This document shows, in pieces, positions 2,861-30,278 of a DNA stretch of 38,590 nt. Where the stretch lies: positions 1 to 38,590 of IMG/VR virus record IMGVR_UViG_3300024262_000100; one strand, 5' to 3'. This DNA is from a virus. Positions within the stretch are counted from its first letter, which is position 1. Each line of letters starts with the position of its first letter. Both the position numbers and the translations under genes were made by a program. The notes beneath the pieces are model-generated. The model was not told the DNA's origin. It ran no database searches and saw only the letters and a list, made by a program, of their open reading frames with translations.

Positions 2861-3049
2861 ATGAATGATGACCAAATAAAGATCTATTTTGGCTCGGAAA
2901 GTGGTAAAGAAGTGTCAAAAAAAATGATGGTTTTCCTTACTGAAAACGGATATCAGCCTATTAGTGATGATAAATCACCATTTGTCCTGTATACAAAACG
3001 TATAGAAAAAAAAATAAAAGTATCTAAAAAGAAAAGTAAAAATAACTAA
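2861..3049 (+). CDS. Small hypothetical protein ahead of the terminase (62 aa)
   Basis: Acidic N-terminal half and a strongly basic C-terminal tail (KKIKVSKKKSKNN). It occupies the place where the small terminase subunit normally lies, 5 bp before the large subunit, but is far shorter than usual small subunits and shows no helix-turn-helix that I can see. It could be a reduced DNA-recognition partner or an unrelated protein. First gene of the late operon. Confidence 0.6.
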   Translation: MNDDQIKIYFGSESGKEVSKKMMVFLTENGYQPISDDKSPFVLYTKRIEKKIKVSKKKSKNN

Positions 3050-12168: not shown

Positions 12169-13452
12169 ATGCCACAATCTATTTTTTCTGCAAAATCAAA
12201 AAAGTGTATTTTCTTGGAAAAATTTCAAGATAGATATTCAGTCTTTAAAAATGGAGGATTTGTTGATAACTCTTTACTTATTAATGGAAGTGTTGATATT
12301 GATAGTGCTTCTAAGCTGATGAGCTATTCAAATTCCTACAAGCTTAGTAATTCAATAAGAATTAGTGCCGATGTAAATTTTAAGAATGTTTTGTCTGATA
12401 TTCAGCCAATAGTTTCATTCGGTGATTTTATGACAACTTCTTTTGAAATTGGGTTAGAGGCTACCCCGACAGGATCAACTAAGAGAATCTATTTTAAAGA
12501 CCCATCTGCAACCATATATTCAACAGAATATCTACCTACTGGAAGAAATAAGATTGATGTGGTCGTAAGTGGAACAAAGGTTTATTTTTATGTTAATGAT
12601 GAGCTGTTTGGGACTTCTGTAACTCACACCTTCACTTTCGTAAGTGTTGACTGGCAAACTCTATTGGTAGGAGGAGATCAAAGCTATATGTATTATTTTG
12701 ATGGGGATATTTATTCCGTAGGGCTATATGATAAATATTTTACTGAGCAGGAACTTAGCGATGCACCATTGACATACCTAAAAAACTCAACTGTAATACT
12801 AGCAACAAATTCTGTTATAGGTAATAGTGATCCATTCGTTACACCGGATAGTGCTAATTATGAATATGATGCAATCCTCGGAGATGGATTAGGAAATAAC
12901 AAGCCGACTAAAATAGTGAATGATCTTGGTTTTGATTATAGCGTAGGAACAACACCATACTTAGCTATATATGACATTGACGATCAAGAACTATCAACTA
13001 ATTTTACAGTAGGTCTTTGGGTGAACTGGAACAGCTCTGTAAATGCTCATTTTATGGGAACTTCCAGCCTAAGTTCTCCTTGGAATGGTTTTTGTTTGCG
13101 ATTCCAAAATGTTTACTTGGAAATGGAAATCGGAGGTGGTGGAACATGGAGATCGGCAAATGATGTAGTTTCAAAAAACAATAATGCTTATGAGCTGATT
13201 ATCGCAACTATGACGCCTACAGCACTCAGAATATACAGAGATGGTGATCAAATTGGAGCTAATGGATCTTCAATGCCAAACATATCAAATGACCAACCAT
13301 TATATATTGGCAAGCTCATAACCGCTAGGTCTGGGGCTAATTTTGCTGGACAACATGGCCCTGTTTTTGTAGATAGCAAAAGGGCTTGGACTCCAACAGA
13401 AATAAAAGATCTCTATTTAAAAGGAATGAATTACTTTAAAACTTATGCTTAA
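12169..13452 (+). CDS. Appendage with two LamG/ConA-like domains (427 aa)
   Basis: Two jelly-roll lectin-like domains can be seen by their strand pattern. Domain 1 spans about residues 25-195, with KIDVVVSGTKVYFYVNDELFG and LLVGGDQ before a YFDGDIYSVGLYDKYFTEQEL closing segment. Domain 2 spans about residues 280-420, with FTVGLWVNWN, LIIATMTPTALRIYRDG, LYIGKL and a final AWTPTEIKDLY. LamG folds in phage tails usually bind carbohydrate. The last 8 bp overlap the next gene, which carries more of the same domains, so the two probably form one appendage. Confidence 0.75.
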   Translation: MPQSIFSAKSKKCIFLEKFQDRYSVFKNGGFVDNSLLINGSVDIDSASKLMSYSNSYKLSNSIRISADVNFKNVLSDIQPIVSFGDFMTTSFEIGLEATPTGSTKRIYFKDPSATIYSTEYLPTGRNKIDVVVSGTKVYFYVNDELFGTSVTHTFTFVSVDWQTLLVGGDQSYMYYFDGDIYSVGLYDKYFTEQELSDAPLTYLKNSTVILATNSVIGNSDPFVTPDSANYEYDAILGDGLGNNKPTKIVNDLGFDYSVGTTPYLAIYDIDDQELSTNFTVGLWVNWNSSVNAHFMGTSSLSSPWNGFCLRFQNVYLEMEIGGGGTWRSANDVVSKNNNAYELIIATMTPTALRIYRDGDQIGANGSSMPNISNDQPLYIGKLITARSGANFAGQHGPVFVDSKRAWTPTEIKDLYLKGMNYFKTYA

Positions 13453-15328
13453 AAAAAACTTAGCGCTTGCAATGGATTTTACAAAAGGTGCTTTACTGGA
13501 TCTTTCTGGAAACGAAAATGATGGAGCAATGACTTTTGGTGAGGTTTTTACCTCTCTCAATGGTAGTTTGGCTATTAATGGACAAAATGGACTAATAAAT
13601 ATTCCTAATGATTCTACTTTAGACACAAATGCTATAACTCTTTGTTTTGGTGGTGATCTTACAGACGGACTAAAAAAAGAGCAGTGTTTTATTGATAAAA
13701 GGTCTGCTGGTAGTGCTGATTTTGTAGTCTACACTCCATCAGATAATAATCTGACATTCTTAGGCACTGTAGCTTCTAATATAAATATCCCTGATTCTGA
13801 TCTAAAGGGTGCAACCTCTCTTATCATTACAAAGGCTAATGGGTCTTCCATCCCAAAAGTTTATCTTAATGGTATTTTTTATGGAAATATGTCTGCTGCA
13901 ACTGAAATTGGCAATAATGGAAATAATATATATATAGGTAGAATTTATTTCAATGTTTATCCTTTGAAAACAAAACTAACATCAATAGCGATTTATAATG
14001 ATGAAAAAGGTGTTTATGACTTAGGTATTATTAAGAAGTGGCAAAACTCAGTAAAAACACCATACTCTTCGGTTAGAAATAATCTTTATCCAATTAATGT
14101 TCAGAAAGACAATGATCCAGATTTAGTTTCTGCTTGGACTATGGAGATCATAAACTCTAATATTGTAGACAATATTAGTGGTGGTTTGGACTTAATGAAG
14201 GCTGGGATTGTTGAAAATAGGATTGGTATCTCAAGAAATAAATTATTATATTTTGGAGGTGGGTATGCTACTGGAATGATGTATGCGAGCGAAGACTGGT
14301 CAAGTGGTTTCTCTTTTGGTGCTTATGTTTGTCCAGATTCCGTTGTGGGAATTCAATACTTAATAGATCATAGGGATTCTTTTGCATCAGATCAGGGCTT
14401 TGCCGTTAGGCTAAACTCTGGTGTTTTGGAGTTTTGGGGGATGGATGCCGGTGTTGGTGCGTGGAAATCATGTTCAAATACTATCGCAGCCGGTCAAGAA
14501 ATACATGTAGGGGTTGAATATGATAATGTTAATGTTGGTTTTTATTTAAACGGAACTTTAATAAATCAAGAGGCTTATACTGAGCCTGTTGGTGTTTCTA
14601 GTGCTTTTGTTTATTTGTCTGCTGATACTTCCGGTGCGAACACTTATTTGGGAACTATGGATGAGCCAAAGATAATGAAAAGAGCGATCGGTGCTTCTAA
14701 AATGATGGAGTGGGCGAGTACAAAAAAAGGGCGTGTTTTATATAATCAAGATTTTTCTGATTCATATGTTCAGCTTAATAATACTAATGCCATAGGATCT
14801 CCTATACCATCTACAGATCTAAACATTATTGCTGCTGGTTTTAAAGTAGTGAATTCTAGCGAGAGAGGCAGAAAGGCTATAATTGGGTCAACCTTTGGAT
14901 CAAGGGTATCTACTGTTCATGATGGAAGGCCTTACGGAACTTATGAGTGGGATGTTGAAAGGGCATCTGGTCAAAGATTATATTTTAGTGCCATGAATAA
15001 TGATGATTCCTTATTAACTGGACAATTTATGTCTGTTGATTGTGGTGGGGGTGGAAATGATTATGTACAGGTAAACACTGAAACTGGTGTAAAACTGACT
15101 ACCTCTGTTGGCTCCCTTCCAGTTGGTAATTATAAGCTTAGGCTTGTTATTGAGGATCCGGCAGTTAAGCCTACTAATAACTGTAGCTTATTTGTCGATG
15201 GTTCTTTGATAGCAGCAGATACAGGTTCAAACCCTTGGACCTATGCACCGTCATTAGGTTCAATTAATTACATGCTCGCTGCTCCTTATTCTGGCGGAAA
15301 AATATTGAAGATAACAAAAAAATATTAA
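13445..15328 (+). CDS. Appendage with three LamG/ConA-like domains (627 aa)
   Basis: Starts with LamG-like signature LALAMDFTKGALLDLSGNEND and continues through three beta-sandwich units: about 1-200 (LIITKANGSSIPKVYLNG, IYIGRIY), about 225-420 (FSFGAYVCPDSVVG, HVGVEYDNVNVGFYLNG, AFVYLSAD) and about 435-627 (YEWDVERASGQRLYFSAM, YKLRLVIED, CSLFVDGSLI). It overlaps the 427-aa gene by 8 bp and shares its architecture, so the pair likely arose by duplication. Probable glycan-binding host-recognition part of the tail. Confidence 0.75.
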   Translation: MLKKNLALAMDFTKGALLDLSGNENDGAMTFGEVFTSLNGSLAINGQNGLINIPNDSTLDTNAITLCFGGDLTDGLKKEQCFIDKRSAGSADFVVYTPSDNNLTFLGTVASNINIPDSDLKGATSLIITKANGSSIPKVYLNGIFYGNMSAATEIGNNGNNIYIGRIYFNVYPLKTKLTSIAIYNDEKGVYDLGIIKKWQNSVKTPYSSVRNNLYPINVQKDNDPDLVSAWTMEIINSNIVDNISGGLDLMKAGIVENRIGISRNKLLYFGGGYATGMMYASEDWSSGFSFGAYVCPDSVVGIQYLIDHRDSFASDQGFAVRLNSGVLEFWGMDAGVGAWKSCSNTIAAGQEIHVGVEYDNVNVGFYLNGTLINQEAYTEPVGVSSAFVYLSADTSGANTYLGTMDEPKIMKRAIGASKMMEWASTKKGRVLYNQDFSDSYVQLNNTNAIGSPIPSTDLNIIAAGFKVVNSSERGRKAIIGSTFGSRVSTVHDGRPYGTYEWDVERASGQRLYFSAMNNDDSLLTGQFMSVDCGGGGNDYVQVNTETGVKLTTSVGSLPVGNYKLRLVIEDPAVKPTNNCSLFVDGSLIAADTGSNPWTYAPSLGSINYMLAAPYSGGKILKITKKY

Positions 15329-25320: not shown

Positions 25321-25979
25321 TTAATTTATTATGTGTATTTTTGCTTCACAAGAAGTATTATCTTTTCTATCCATGAAAAATAAATCACCTCTTTTTCTAT
25401 ATCTAATGTTCATAGCATCCACGACCTCAAACTCCCCATTGCATCTAGGATCATTGCCGTCTATCTGTTCTAACCTGATTTTCTGGTAGGGTTTGATATC
25501 CCCTTTTAACATAGACCATGAAAGCATTTCCTGAGAAAGAGCTATTGGCCTTCTCCCCTGCTTAACCATCTCACATATATTAGCGCCTGTGCCTCCGGCA
25601 ATGCAGGGGGTAGAATCTGTCTGGCCTACTTCTGGGTTATAACTGGTGAAGGTGATGGCTTTTTTTTTAGTTCATCGGGCGGTTCAATCTTCCCCTTATT
25701 TTTTATGAACTTATTTTGAAGTTCTACGATCTTTTTTTGAGCTTCCTCAAGCTCTCTACCTTTAGAGAAATATGCTAATTCAGCTTCCTCATACTTTTCT
25801 TTAGCCTCTGCAACTTCAATGGCCAAGACTCCTGACTTAGAAGCTAATTCTAACAATTCTTCATTCCTTTCTTCCCTTTTCTTGCTGGCTGCTGATGGTG
25901 CAACTAGCATGACGGCCAAGATTATGACCAGCGCAACGGCTATAGCAGCCATTACTTTTATTACTATTTCTTTGTTCAT
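25321..25979 (-). CDS. Membrane-anchored 3D-domain protein made by probable -1 frameshift (219 aa; 117 aa without shift)
   Basis: Two frames join at an A9 run (25668-25660). Frame one starts at 25979: a TM segment (residues about 8-27, VMAAIAVALVIILAVMLVA), a Glu/Lys coiled coil, then PSPSPVITQK and TAG at 25628-25626. Frame -1 opens with a TGA just before the A run and reads on without stop as AITFTSYNPEVGQTDSTPC, AGGTGANIC, RRPIALSQEML, CNGEFEVVDAMNIRYRKRGD to a stop at 25321. The second part resembles the 3D (beta-barrel) domain, with its Asp residues in TDS, VVDAMN and RGD. Only an internal ATG at 25569 could start it alone, which would cut off the TDSTPC segment. A homopolymer sequencing error is the other explanation. 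Confidence 0.7.
25660..25668 (-). promoter_or_regulatory. Slippery A9 run (A_AAA_AAG) for -1 frameshifting
   Basis: The mRNA reads CTA AAA AAA AAG CCA. The heptamer A AAA AAG is the same as the slip site of E. coli dnaX. The -1 frame has a TGA just upstream (ATGAACT), so the shift must happen in the A run. A stop in frame zero follows 10 codons later. Confidence 0.6.
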
Positions 25980-28350: not shown

Positions 28351-29976
28351 TTACATAGGTTTTTTTTCTTCAGGTATATCAATTATACCAGCCTCAGTAG
28401 TGATAAGAACACCAGCTACAGAAACAGCATTTACCAAAGCAGTAGATATTACTTTTAGCGGATCAATTATTCCGGATTCAATCATATTAACGCTTTTCAA
28501 TTCATCCCCAGAGACATCAAAGCCAAAGCCTTCTTCTGTGATCATCGGCCCTGTTCCATACTCACTAGCACTCTCACCAGCATTCCTAAGTATCTGATTG
28601 AATGGCTCAATACAAGCATTCACAACCAAAACATATCCGATCTCTACACCTTTTTTTTGCCCCTTTAGTTTAATACTTTTTTTGGCAACATCTCTAAGAG
28701 CAACACCACCACCTGAAACTATTCCTTGCTCCATAGCAGATTTACAAGCATTTACAGCATCTTCAACTCTATATCTCACCTCAATAGCATCTGTTTCTGT
28801 CGGTGCGGAAATTTTAATTGAAGCTATACCGCCATTAATATTAGCAAGTCTTTGTTTCAAAAGTTCTTTATTGTAAGAAGAATCTTCGTTTTCGATCTGT
28901 TCCTCAAGCCCTTTTTTATGTGATTCATAAAGTTCTTTTCCCCCTGCTGTTAGTGTAGGAGCAGTAAATATCGTTTCATGTTTTGATGTTCTTACTGATT
29001 TCACCATTGGTAAATCCTGAATAGTGACTCCCTCAACATAAGTTGCTTCCTCTTTGCTGTATGGCTTTGCTCCAATAACAGCCCCTAGATCATCAAAGAA
29101 GTCTTTTCTTTTTTGACCAAAAAGAGGCGCTCTTAAAAGCATCAACTGGATATTATTTCCTTCTGCAAATTTCATAAGCATAGGCACTATTTCTGGTGCG
29201 TAATCATCAGCTAAAACAACCAATTTATTCTCTCCGCTTTTCACCATCGAATCTGCTAGTGCTGCAAAAGCTTTTACACCATTGGAAATTGAGTCTTTAC
29301 ATACTAGAATCCTAGCATTTTCTATCGTTTTATATTGCTGTGTTGCTGCTGCTTGGTCTTTGAACTGCATCCTACAAGCCAAAAAGCCACTATCCATCTT
29401 AATACCATCAACTTTTTCATATGTAACTTTTTCTTCGTGTCCATCTTCAAGGGTTACCGCTCCATCAGCTCCAACTTGATACATAAGTTCACCAATAAGA
29501 TCTCCAAGTTCTTCATCCTGACATGAGATTCTTGCAACCTGCTTAACTTCATCTTCAGTTTCTACTTTTTTTGCTATCCCTTTTAGAGTTTTAACAATAT
29601 TTTCTTTTGCGATATCCATTCCCCTTCTAATATCCGTAGGACTATTTCCATCCTGAATTGCAGCCATAGCTTCTTTTACAAGTGTAGCTCCTAAAAGAGT
29701 CGCACAAGTAGTACCATCACCAGCAATTTCATTAGTTTGAATTGCAGCCTGTTTCAAAGTTTGCGCTCCTAGATTTTCCCACTGATCTGATAAAACAATC
29801 TCTCTAGCAATCGTTACACCATCATTGGTGACGTGTGGTGCCCTGTGTGGACGTTCCATGATAACATTTCGACCCTTTGCCCCCATAGTTTGAATAACAG
29901 CCTTAGAAAGCTTCTCAACTCCATTTAGTAATTTAGTCCGTAATTCTTCACCGTATAGTAAATCTTTCTTGTTCAT
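28351..29976 (-). CDS. groEL: Chaperonin GroEL (541 aa)
   Basis: A phage-encoded 60-kDa chaperonin: it encapsulates unfolded protein and folds it using ATP together with GroES. Key positions align with E. coli: NDGVTIARE (D52 at residue 52), GAKGRNV, AGDGTTCATLL (D87 at residue 87), VEDA (Asp about 406, corresponding to D398), SGGGVAL (about 421-427) and SVAGVLITTEA near the end. The apical domain (about 190-375) is much more divergent than the ATP-binding domains, and the C-terminal Gly-Met tail is missing; it ends IPEEKKPM. Length is about normal. The gene follows groES by 26 bp and has its own terminator. Confidence 0.97.
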   Translation of the reverse strand: MNKKDLLYGEELRTKLLNGVEKLSKAVIQTMGAKGRNVIMERPHRAPHVTNDGVTIAREIVLSDQWENLGAQTLKQAAIQTNEIAGDGTTCATLLGATLVKEAMAAIQDGNSPTDIRRGMDIAKENIVKTLKGIAKKVETEDEVKQVARISCQDEELGDLIGELMYQVGADGAVTLEDGHEEKVTYEKVDGIKMDSGFLACRMQFKDQAAATQQYKTIENARILVCKDSISNGVKAFAALADSMVKSGENKLVVLADDYAPEIVPMLMKFAEGNNIQLMLLRAPLFGQKRKDFFDDLGAVIGAKPYSKEEATYVEGVTIQDLPMVKSVRTSKHETIFTAPTLTAGGKELYESHKKGLEEQIENEDSSYNKELLKQRLANINGGIASIKISAPTETDAIEVRYRVEDAVNACKSAMEQGIVSGGGVALRDVAKKSIKLKGQKKGVEIGYVLVVNACIEPFNQILRNAGESASEYGTGPMITEEGFGFDVSGDELKSVNMIESGIIDPLKVISTALVNAVSVAGVLITTEAGIIDIPEEKKPM

Positions 29977-30002: not shown

Positions 30003-30278
30003 TTAAATTTCAACAGCTAAAATATCTTTAGCATCGACAAAAAACAGTTCTTCCCCATCAATCTCAACTTTATCAGGTGAGTATTTTCTATAATAAACAG
30101 TATCAGCAATTTCTAAAATATCACCTAAGTCCTCACTAATATCTATAATTATCCCCTTTACTGGCATTTGTCCTGATTGAAGTTCCTTATCAATCTCAAT
30201 GTTTCCTAACATTTCCTTTTTAGGCTTGATTAGAACTCTCCCCTCTGCAAGATTAAGAGTTTCTATTTTTTTCTCCAT
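30003..30278 (-). CDS. groES: Co-chaperonin GroES (91 aa)
   Basis: The lid of GroEL. The beta-barrel pattern is clear: GRVLIKPKK (about residues 13-21), PVKGIIIDI (about 39-47), ILEIADTVYYRKYSPDKVEIDG (about 54-75, in two segments) and ELFFVDAKDILAVE (about 77-90), matching the family ending of the type LIxxxDILA. The mobile loop (about 22-38, GNIEIDKELQSGQ) is present but differs from bacterial forms, consistent with an adapted partner for the phage GroEL. Directly upstream of groEL, a common chaperonin order. Confidence 0.92.
   Translation of the reverse strand: MEKKIETLNLAEGRVLIKPKKEMLGNIEIDKELQSGQMPVKGIIIDISEDLGDILEIADTVYYRKYSPDKVEIDGEELFFVDAKDILAVEI

What the first reader, a model, noticed from the sequence alone, without database searches (positions are those of the whole stretch)
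25321..25979. Programmed -1 frameshift joining a membrane anchor to a 3D-type domain
The slip heptamer A AAA AAG (dnaX type) sits exactly where the -1 frame becomes open: a TGA lies just upstream in that frame and a TAG ends the zero frame 10 codons later. The short form (117 aa) is a TM coiled-coil; the long form (219 aa) adds a beta-barrel domain with TDS, VVDAMN and RGD motifs whose first strands have no start codon of their own. Two products from one gene in a set ratio would be a neat switch. A read error in the A9 run is the main alternative.
Basis: partly seen in the sequence, partly recalled or inferred. Interest (0 to 1): 0.75.

Follow-up and report, generated by a model that had tools for sequence, protein, structure and literature searches.

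The report
Phage gene split by a slippage site
A bacterial virus appears to make two proteins from one gene, a short membrane anchor and, when the reading machinery slips on a run of nine A's, a longer version carrying a cell-wall-cutting-type domain; a second, distantly related virus has its gene split at the same point.

Summary
On the minus strand, a 117-aa TM/coiled-coil ORF (25979-25626) contains an A9 run (25668-25660). The -1 frame, open only from 25671, encodes a conserved domain with no start codon before its core. AlphaFold gives that domain a confident fold (pLDDT 92) whose first strand begins 3 codons after the slip site. Relatives make the two halves one protein: three viral orthologs (58-66% identity), two of them reading TGA as Gly, and Patescibacteria homologues are single-frame anchor+domain proteins. 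A fourth viral ortholog (L170) is split like the window: TM/coil ORF in frame 0, domain in -1, 46-nt overlap, no canonical start, no long A-run. So recoding at the linker is more likely than a read error; both domains show purifying selection. Corrections: A10 or A7, not A8, would restore the frame. A_AAA_AA(A/G) sites are common here (4% of 48-nt windows). No stimulatory stem exists, and no Shine-Dalgarno helper in the window, so RNA-polymerase slippage on A9 is a serious rival to ribosomal slippage. The domain keeps two of the three 3D aspartates and the assisting Thr. Programmed ratio and function are inferred. A new variant of a known kind.

The parts
25626..25979 (-). Frame-0 ORF, 117 aa: TM helix, coiled coil, Pro-rich tail (short form)
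   Evidence: Kyte-Doolittle maximum 3.18 over residues 9-27; weak matches to phrog_739 Rz-like spanin (E 0.007) and to the N-terminal part of phrog_6631 (E 0.005, fused form)
25899..25955 (-). Predicted transmembrane segment (residues 9-27)
25660..25668 (-). A9 run, slippage tract (CTA AAA AAA AAG in frame 0)
25659..25665 (-). Slip heptamer A_AAA_AAG (an overlapping A_AAA_AAA lies one codon upstream)
25672..25674 (-). TGA closing the -1 frame upstream of the slip site
25626..25628 (-). TAG ending frame 0
25321..25671 (-). -1 frame ORF: DPBB/3D-type domain with TAA stop; no ATG/GTG/TTG before the domain core
   Evidence: AlphaFold pLDDT 92.4, pTM 0.84
25417..25419 (-). Asp188 of the fused protein (VVDAMN), invariant in all 19 aligned sequences; proposed equivalent of YuiC D151
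   Evidence: YuiC assignment by motif and spacing (PMC4499186)
25384..25386 (-). Asp199 of the fused protein (RGDLFF), invariant; proposed catalytic Asp (YuiC D162), same 11-residue spacing
   Evidence: PMC4499186
24980..25318 (-). Neighbour: RusA-like resolvase just downstream; a RusA-like gene also follows the fused gene in L172
24029..24631 (+). Neighbour: Amidase_2 endolysin in the convergent late operon
   Evidence: Pfam E 6e-19

Best explanation
One recoded gene. All ribosomes translate the TM/coiled-coil anchor. Most stop at TAG (117 aa). A fraction slip back one base on the A-rich site in the linker (A_AAA_AAA / A_AAA_AAG) and continue in the -1 frame, adding a double-psi beta-barrel 3D/YuiC-type domain to give a 219-aa membrane-anchored protein. 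The domain probably faces the cell wall and cuts or binds peptidoglycan. Shown: the frames, the missing start codon, the predicted fold, the fused relatives, and the same -1 split in a second phage. Inferred: that slippage occurs and at what rate, that ribosomes rather than RNA polymerase slip, membrane topology, and enzymatic activity.
For: Frames and lack of starts. Single-frame anchor+domain orthologs: L164 in the standard code, L151 and L158 with TGA=Gly; Patescibacteria homologues with the same layout. L170 has a 104-aa TM/coil ORF, the domain in the -1 frame, a 46-nt overlap, no canonical start, A_AAA in CTA AAA GAC, and GGAGGA 6-7 nt upstream; its phage shares terminase, capsid and two nuclease-type genes with the window. 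The N-parts of both split genes match the N-part of phrog_6631 (E 0.005 and 0.007), whose C-part matches a 3D homologue (1e-10). Purifying selection on the -1 domain: window versus L170 differences by codon position are 35/30/62. First beta strand at residues 4-9 of the model, right after the slip site. A_AAA_AAG and A_AAA_AAA make up most slip heptamers in IS1/IS3-family elements, and A_AAA tetramers are also used (PMC4066793).
Against: No downstream RNA structure. No Shine-Dalgarno-like helper close upstream in the window, and Shine-Dalgarno sites are nearly absent from this phage's gene starts, so the L170 GGAGGA may not act. Slip heptamers are common in this genome. Three of five orthologs have no shift. 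No expression data, and no close relative in which slip-site conservation can be measured.
Confidence: 0.5

Rival explanations
1. Transcriptional slippage: RNA polymerase adds an A (or drops two) on the A9 template, so a fraction of the mRNAs carry the fused frame. Two products result, but the RNA is what is altered.
For: A run of 9 A or T gives efficient RNA polymerase slippage in bacteria, and T. thermophilus dnaX uses 9 T (PMC5009743). Citrobacter rodentium tssM1 restores a C-terminal domain through an A11 run without helper signals, and both length forms are needed (PMC4256274). The window likewise lacks helper signals and has A9.
Against: L170 has the same split with only four A's, too few for this mechanism, so it would have to be special to the window phage.
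Confidence: 0.22
2. A consensus error, or a real but unprogrammed indel (including on/off phase variation), in the A9 run. The true or ancestral gene is one continuous frame.
For: Long homopolymers are where indels occur. Three of five orthologs are one frame.
Against: About 15 other A/T runs of 8-9 lie in long genes of this contig without breaking them, so the contig is not riddled with errors. L170 has the same -1 break at the linker with no homopolymer, so one read-error type cannot explain both. The domain is under selection in both.
Confidence: 0.2
3. Two separate genes: the domain ORF is translated on its own by reinitiation at a non-standard start codon after termination of the upstream ORF.
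For: In L170 a CTG overlaps the TGA stop (CTGA), the geometry of ATGA-coupled genes, with GGAGGA about 15 nt upstream.
Against: The window has no ATG/GTG/TTG, and no CTG, before the core; all three unsplit viral orthologs carry the domain behind an anchor; a soluble domain would lose its membrane anchor.
Confidence: 0.08

Closest known systems
Citrobacter rodentium tssM1 (A11 transcriptional slippage)
   Same: Poly-A tract just before a frame-0 stop; a membrane protein with or without its C-terminal domain; no helper signals near the tract (PMC4256274).
   Different: Bacterial T6SS gene, A11 rather than A9, mechanism proven there; another protein family.
E. coli dnaX -1 programmed ribosomal frameshift
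   Same: A_AAA_AAG heptamer.
   Different: dnaX has an upstream Shine-Dalgarno and a downstream hairpin (own knowledge), and the shift there shortens the product; here the shift lengthens it and no helper was found.
Phage tail assembly chaperone (lambda G/GT) frameshift
   Same: dsDNA phage, -1 overlap of a short ORF with a downstream ORF lacking its own start.
   Different: Structural chaperone gene; here an anchor plus wall-active-type domain next to RusA and recombination genes. PRFect treats the known joined phage genes as tail chaperones (PMC10885494).
3D / MltA / YuiC (Sps) lytic transglycosylases and RlpA/expansin DPBB proteins
   Same: Fold (Foldseek: PA4485, expansins, YuiC 4wlk; phage 3D and RlpA proteins); two of the three Asp with the same 11-residue spacing, and the assisting Thr.
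   Different: No Pfam 3D hit; the first Asp is replaced by Ser/Asn.
PHROG 6631 (251-aa phage family)
   Same: Its N-part matches both split TM/coil ORFs and its C-part the 3D homologues.
   Different: Scores are weak for the window; the profile is one continuous protein.

Membership tests
Programmed -1 ribosomal frameshift gene | Slippery tetramer or heptamer in the frame 0/-1 overlap | tested here: met
   A_AAA_AAG in the window; A_AAA only in L170
Programmed -1 ribosomal frameshift gene | Stimulator: downstream stem/pseudoknot or upstream Shine-Dalgarno | tested here: not met
   No stem in window or L170; no nearby Shine-Dalgarno in the window; GGAGGA in L170 of doubtful effect. Stimulators are usual but not always required
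Programmed -1 ribosomal frameshift gene | Downstream ORF conserved and without its own start | tested here: met
Programmed -1 ribosomal frameshift gene | Split arrangement conserved in relatives | tested here: inconclusive
   Split in 2 of 5 closest orthologs, fused in 3; slip sequence not conserved between the two split ones
Programmed -1 ribosomal frameshift gene | Trans-frame product made in vivo | not testable with these tools
   needs reporter assay or mass spectrometry
Transcriptional slippage gene | Run of 9 or more A or T at the frame change | tested here: met
   A9 in the window; not in L170 (A4)
3D (PF06725) / YuiC-MltA domain | DPBB fold | tested here: met
   AlphaFold pLDDT 92; Foldseek hits to phage models (3D/RlpA-annotated among them) from E 3e-7; PDB hits weaker (best E 0.006; YuiC 0.098)
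3D (PF06725) / YuiC-MltA domain | Three conserved Asp incl. catalytic one, plus Thr | tested here: inconclusive
   Asp188, Asp199 (spacing 11 as in YuiC D151/D162) and Thr112 conserved; the D129 position is Ser/Asn by motif alignment
3D (PF06725) / YuiC-MltA domain | Pfam 3D HMM hit | tested here: not met
Rz-like i-spanin | N-terminal TM plus coiled coil, with a partner o-spanin lipoprotein | tested here: inconclusive
   phrog_739 E 0.007 for the short form only; no o-spanin sought

The most novel reading that the evidence does not exclude
A conserved length switch in phages related to TGA-recoding (probably Patescibacteria-infecting) viruses: one gene makes a bare membrane anchor and, by slippage, the anchor carrying a cell-wall lytic-transglycosylase-type domain, so the dose of wall-cutting enzyme is fixed relative to its anchor. 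The trick was gained or lost repeatedly within the family, with different slip sequences at the same linker.
Probability: 0.35. Interest if true: 0.65.

Novelty: new variant of a known kind. Interest (0 to 1): 0.52.

Why it matters
Recoding in dsDNA phages is known mostly from tail assembly chaperones. A -1 recoded, membrane-anchored wall enzyme would extend it to an envelope function, in a phage whose relatives reassign TGA to Gly and whose genes lack Shine-Dalgarno sites, where dnaX-type stimulation should not work well. It also shows that a fused family can have its expression rewired by a slip site, which gene callers would annotate as a membrane protein plus a truncated ORF (82 aa here).

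Tried and rejected
Direct searches for close relatives of the fused protein, GroEL and the 1099-aa protein in IMG/VR found none. The pattern YNPxxxQTDxxP gave only chance hits. Relatives found through the capsid (80 loci, 50 records searched) lack a detectable homologue. No match in 380 Patescibacteria genomes at 1e-12. The phage collection has no close homologue. Considered and rejected: TGA read as sense making the frames join (the -1 frame would still lack a start and differ by one base); an SD- or hairpin-driven dnaX mimic in the window (no such elements). L155 and L156 looked broken but are only cut by the locus end.

Full report
The observation. The window is an IMG/VR virus record of 38,590 nt with a podovirus-type major capsid gene. 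On the minus strand the 117-aa ORF 25979-25626 has a transmembrane segment (residues 9-27) and a coiled coil. Its codons 104-107 are CTA AAA AAA AAG, part of an A9 run at 25668-25660. In the -1 frame a TGA lies at 25674-25672 and the frame is then open to a TAA at 25323-25321. The first ATG/GTG/TTG in that frame is at codon 34, inside the conserved domain. Among open segments of at least 70 codons lying mainly outside genes, this was the only one recognised as encoding a conserved domain without a start. The fused product is 219 aa.

How unusual is it. Slip-type heptamers are frequent in this A-rich genome: 102 in frame in 11,526 codons, and 4.2% of random 48-nt coding stretches contain A_AAA_AA(A/G). 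The heptamer alone is therefore weak evidence. Two other A9 runs in larger genes sit 3 nt from stop codons, a third is in a short ORF (2861-3049), and about 15 runs of 8-9 in long genes have not broken them.

The domain. Pfam and NCBIfam do not name it. An AlphaFold model from an alignment of 19 sequences has pLDDT 92.4 and pTM 0.84, with its first strand starting 3 codons after the slip site. Foldseek finds predicted phage proteins, among them ones annotated as 3D-domain and RlpA (best E 3e-7), and more weakly expansins, PA4485 and YuiC in the PDB. The invariant Asp188 and Asp199 (fused numbering) have the same 11-residue spacing as YuiC D151/D162 and MltA D297/D308, and Thr112 matches the Thr that orients the catalytic Asp (PMC4499186; alignment; the equivalence is by motif and spacing, my inference). 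The third YuiC Asp (D129) is Ser or Asn here. So the fold is 3D/DPBB-like, but the full three-Asp signature is not met.

Relatives. A degenerate DNA pattern for the VxDxMNxRYx4D motif found the family in IMG/VR. L164 (58% identity in the domain), and L151 and L158 (63-66%, phages that read TGA as Gly), encode anchor, linker and domain in one continuous frame. Twelve genome hits, nearly all titled as Patescibacteria, have the domain behind an N-terminal stretch that mostly includes a hydrophobic segment, in one frame. One more ortholog, L170 (59% identity, 40.7-kb contig), is split like the window: a 104-aa TM/coil ORF ending TGA TAA, and the domain in the -1 frame with a 46-nt overlap and no ATG/GTG/TTG before its core. 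Its phage also has homologues of the window's terminase, capsid, 206-aa and 184-aa proteins. L170 has no long homopolymer at the junction (CTA AAA GAC TGA); GGAGGA lies 6-7 nt upstream. The N-terminal parts of window and L170 both match the N-part of phrog_6631, whose C-part matches the 3D homologue L175. Codon-position differences between window and L170 domains are 35/30/62, a purifying-selection pattern in the -1 frame.

Mechanism. The domain is selected, has no start and belongs behind an anchor, and the split recurs at the linker in two genomes. Recoding is the best account (all slippage forms together about 0.7). Ribosomal -1 slippage can serve both sites. In the window RNA-polymerase slippage on A9 is a close rival: no stem was found, no Shine-Dalgarno helper is near, 51 of 52 gene starts lack Shine-Dalgarno-like motifs, and A11 in tssM1 and 9 T in T. 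thermophilus dnaX work this way (PMC4256274, PMC5009743). Error or unprogrammed indel remains at about 0.2 because three orthologs are unsplit and no reads could be checked. In L170, reinitiation at a CTG overlapping the TGA is possible.

Function. The gene lies next to RusA, an exonuclease-like and an Erf-like gene; a RusA-like gene also follows the fused gene in L172. The amidase endolysin is in the convergent operon. I infer a membrane-anchored wall-remodelling or lysis-assisting enzyme plus a bare anchor; neither activity nor topology was tested.

Verdict.

Noticed in passing
window, all genes: Of 52 genes 43 end in TAA, 8 in TAG and 1 in TGA; that TGA (amidase, 24631) is followed at once by an in-frame stop, and the split ORF of L170 also ends TGA TAA. 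With TGA=Gly relatives (L151, L158), this hints that the host does not terminate at TGA.
   Followed up: partly
window, all gene starts; L195-L196: Almost no Shine-Dalgarno-like sequences: 1 of 52 window genes; leaders are A/T-rich in both split-gene phages.
   Followed up: partly
28351-29976 and 30003-30278, minus strand: The phage carries its own GroEL (NCBIfam E 6e-134) and a GroES-like gene (E 3e-7).
   Followed up: no
13445-13458, plus strand: Two adjacent large ORFs (12169-13452 and 13445-15328) overlap by 8 nt with an A8 run right at the first stop; possible fusion or coupling not examined.
   Followed up: no
L172:2786-3352: A 188-aa ORF made almost wholly of MQKYQQ(K/E/D)T-like repeats just upstream of the anchor-3D gene in the TGA=Gly phage.
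   Followed up: no
L152:2137-2454: A variant of the domain (about 40% identity) at the C-end of a longer protein that looks like a CHAP-type amidase fusion by eye.
   Followed up: no
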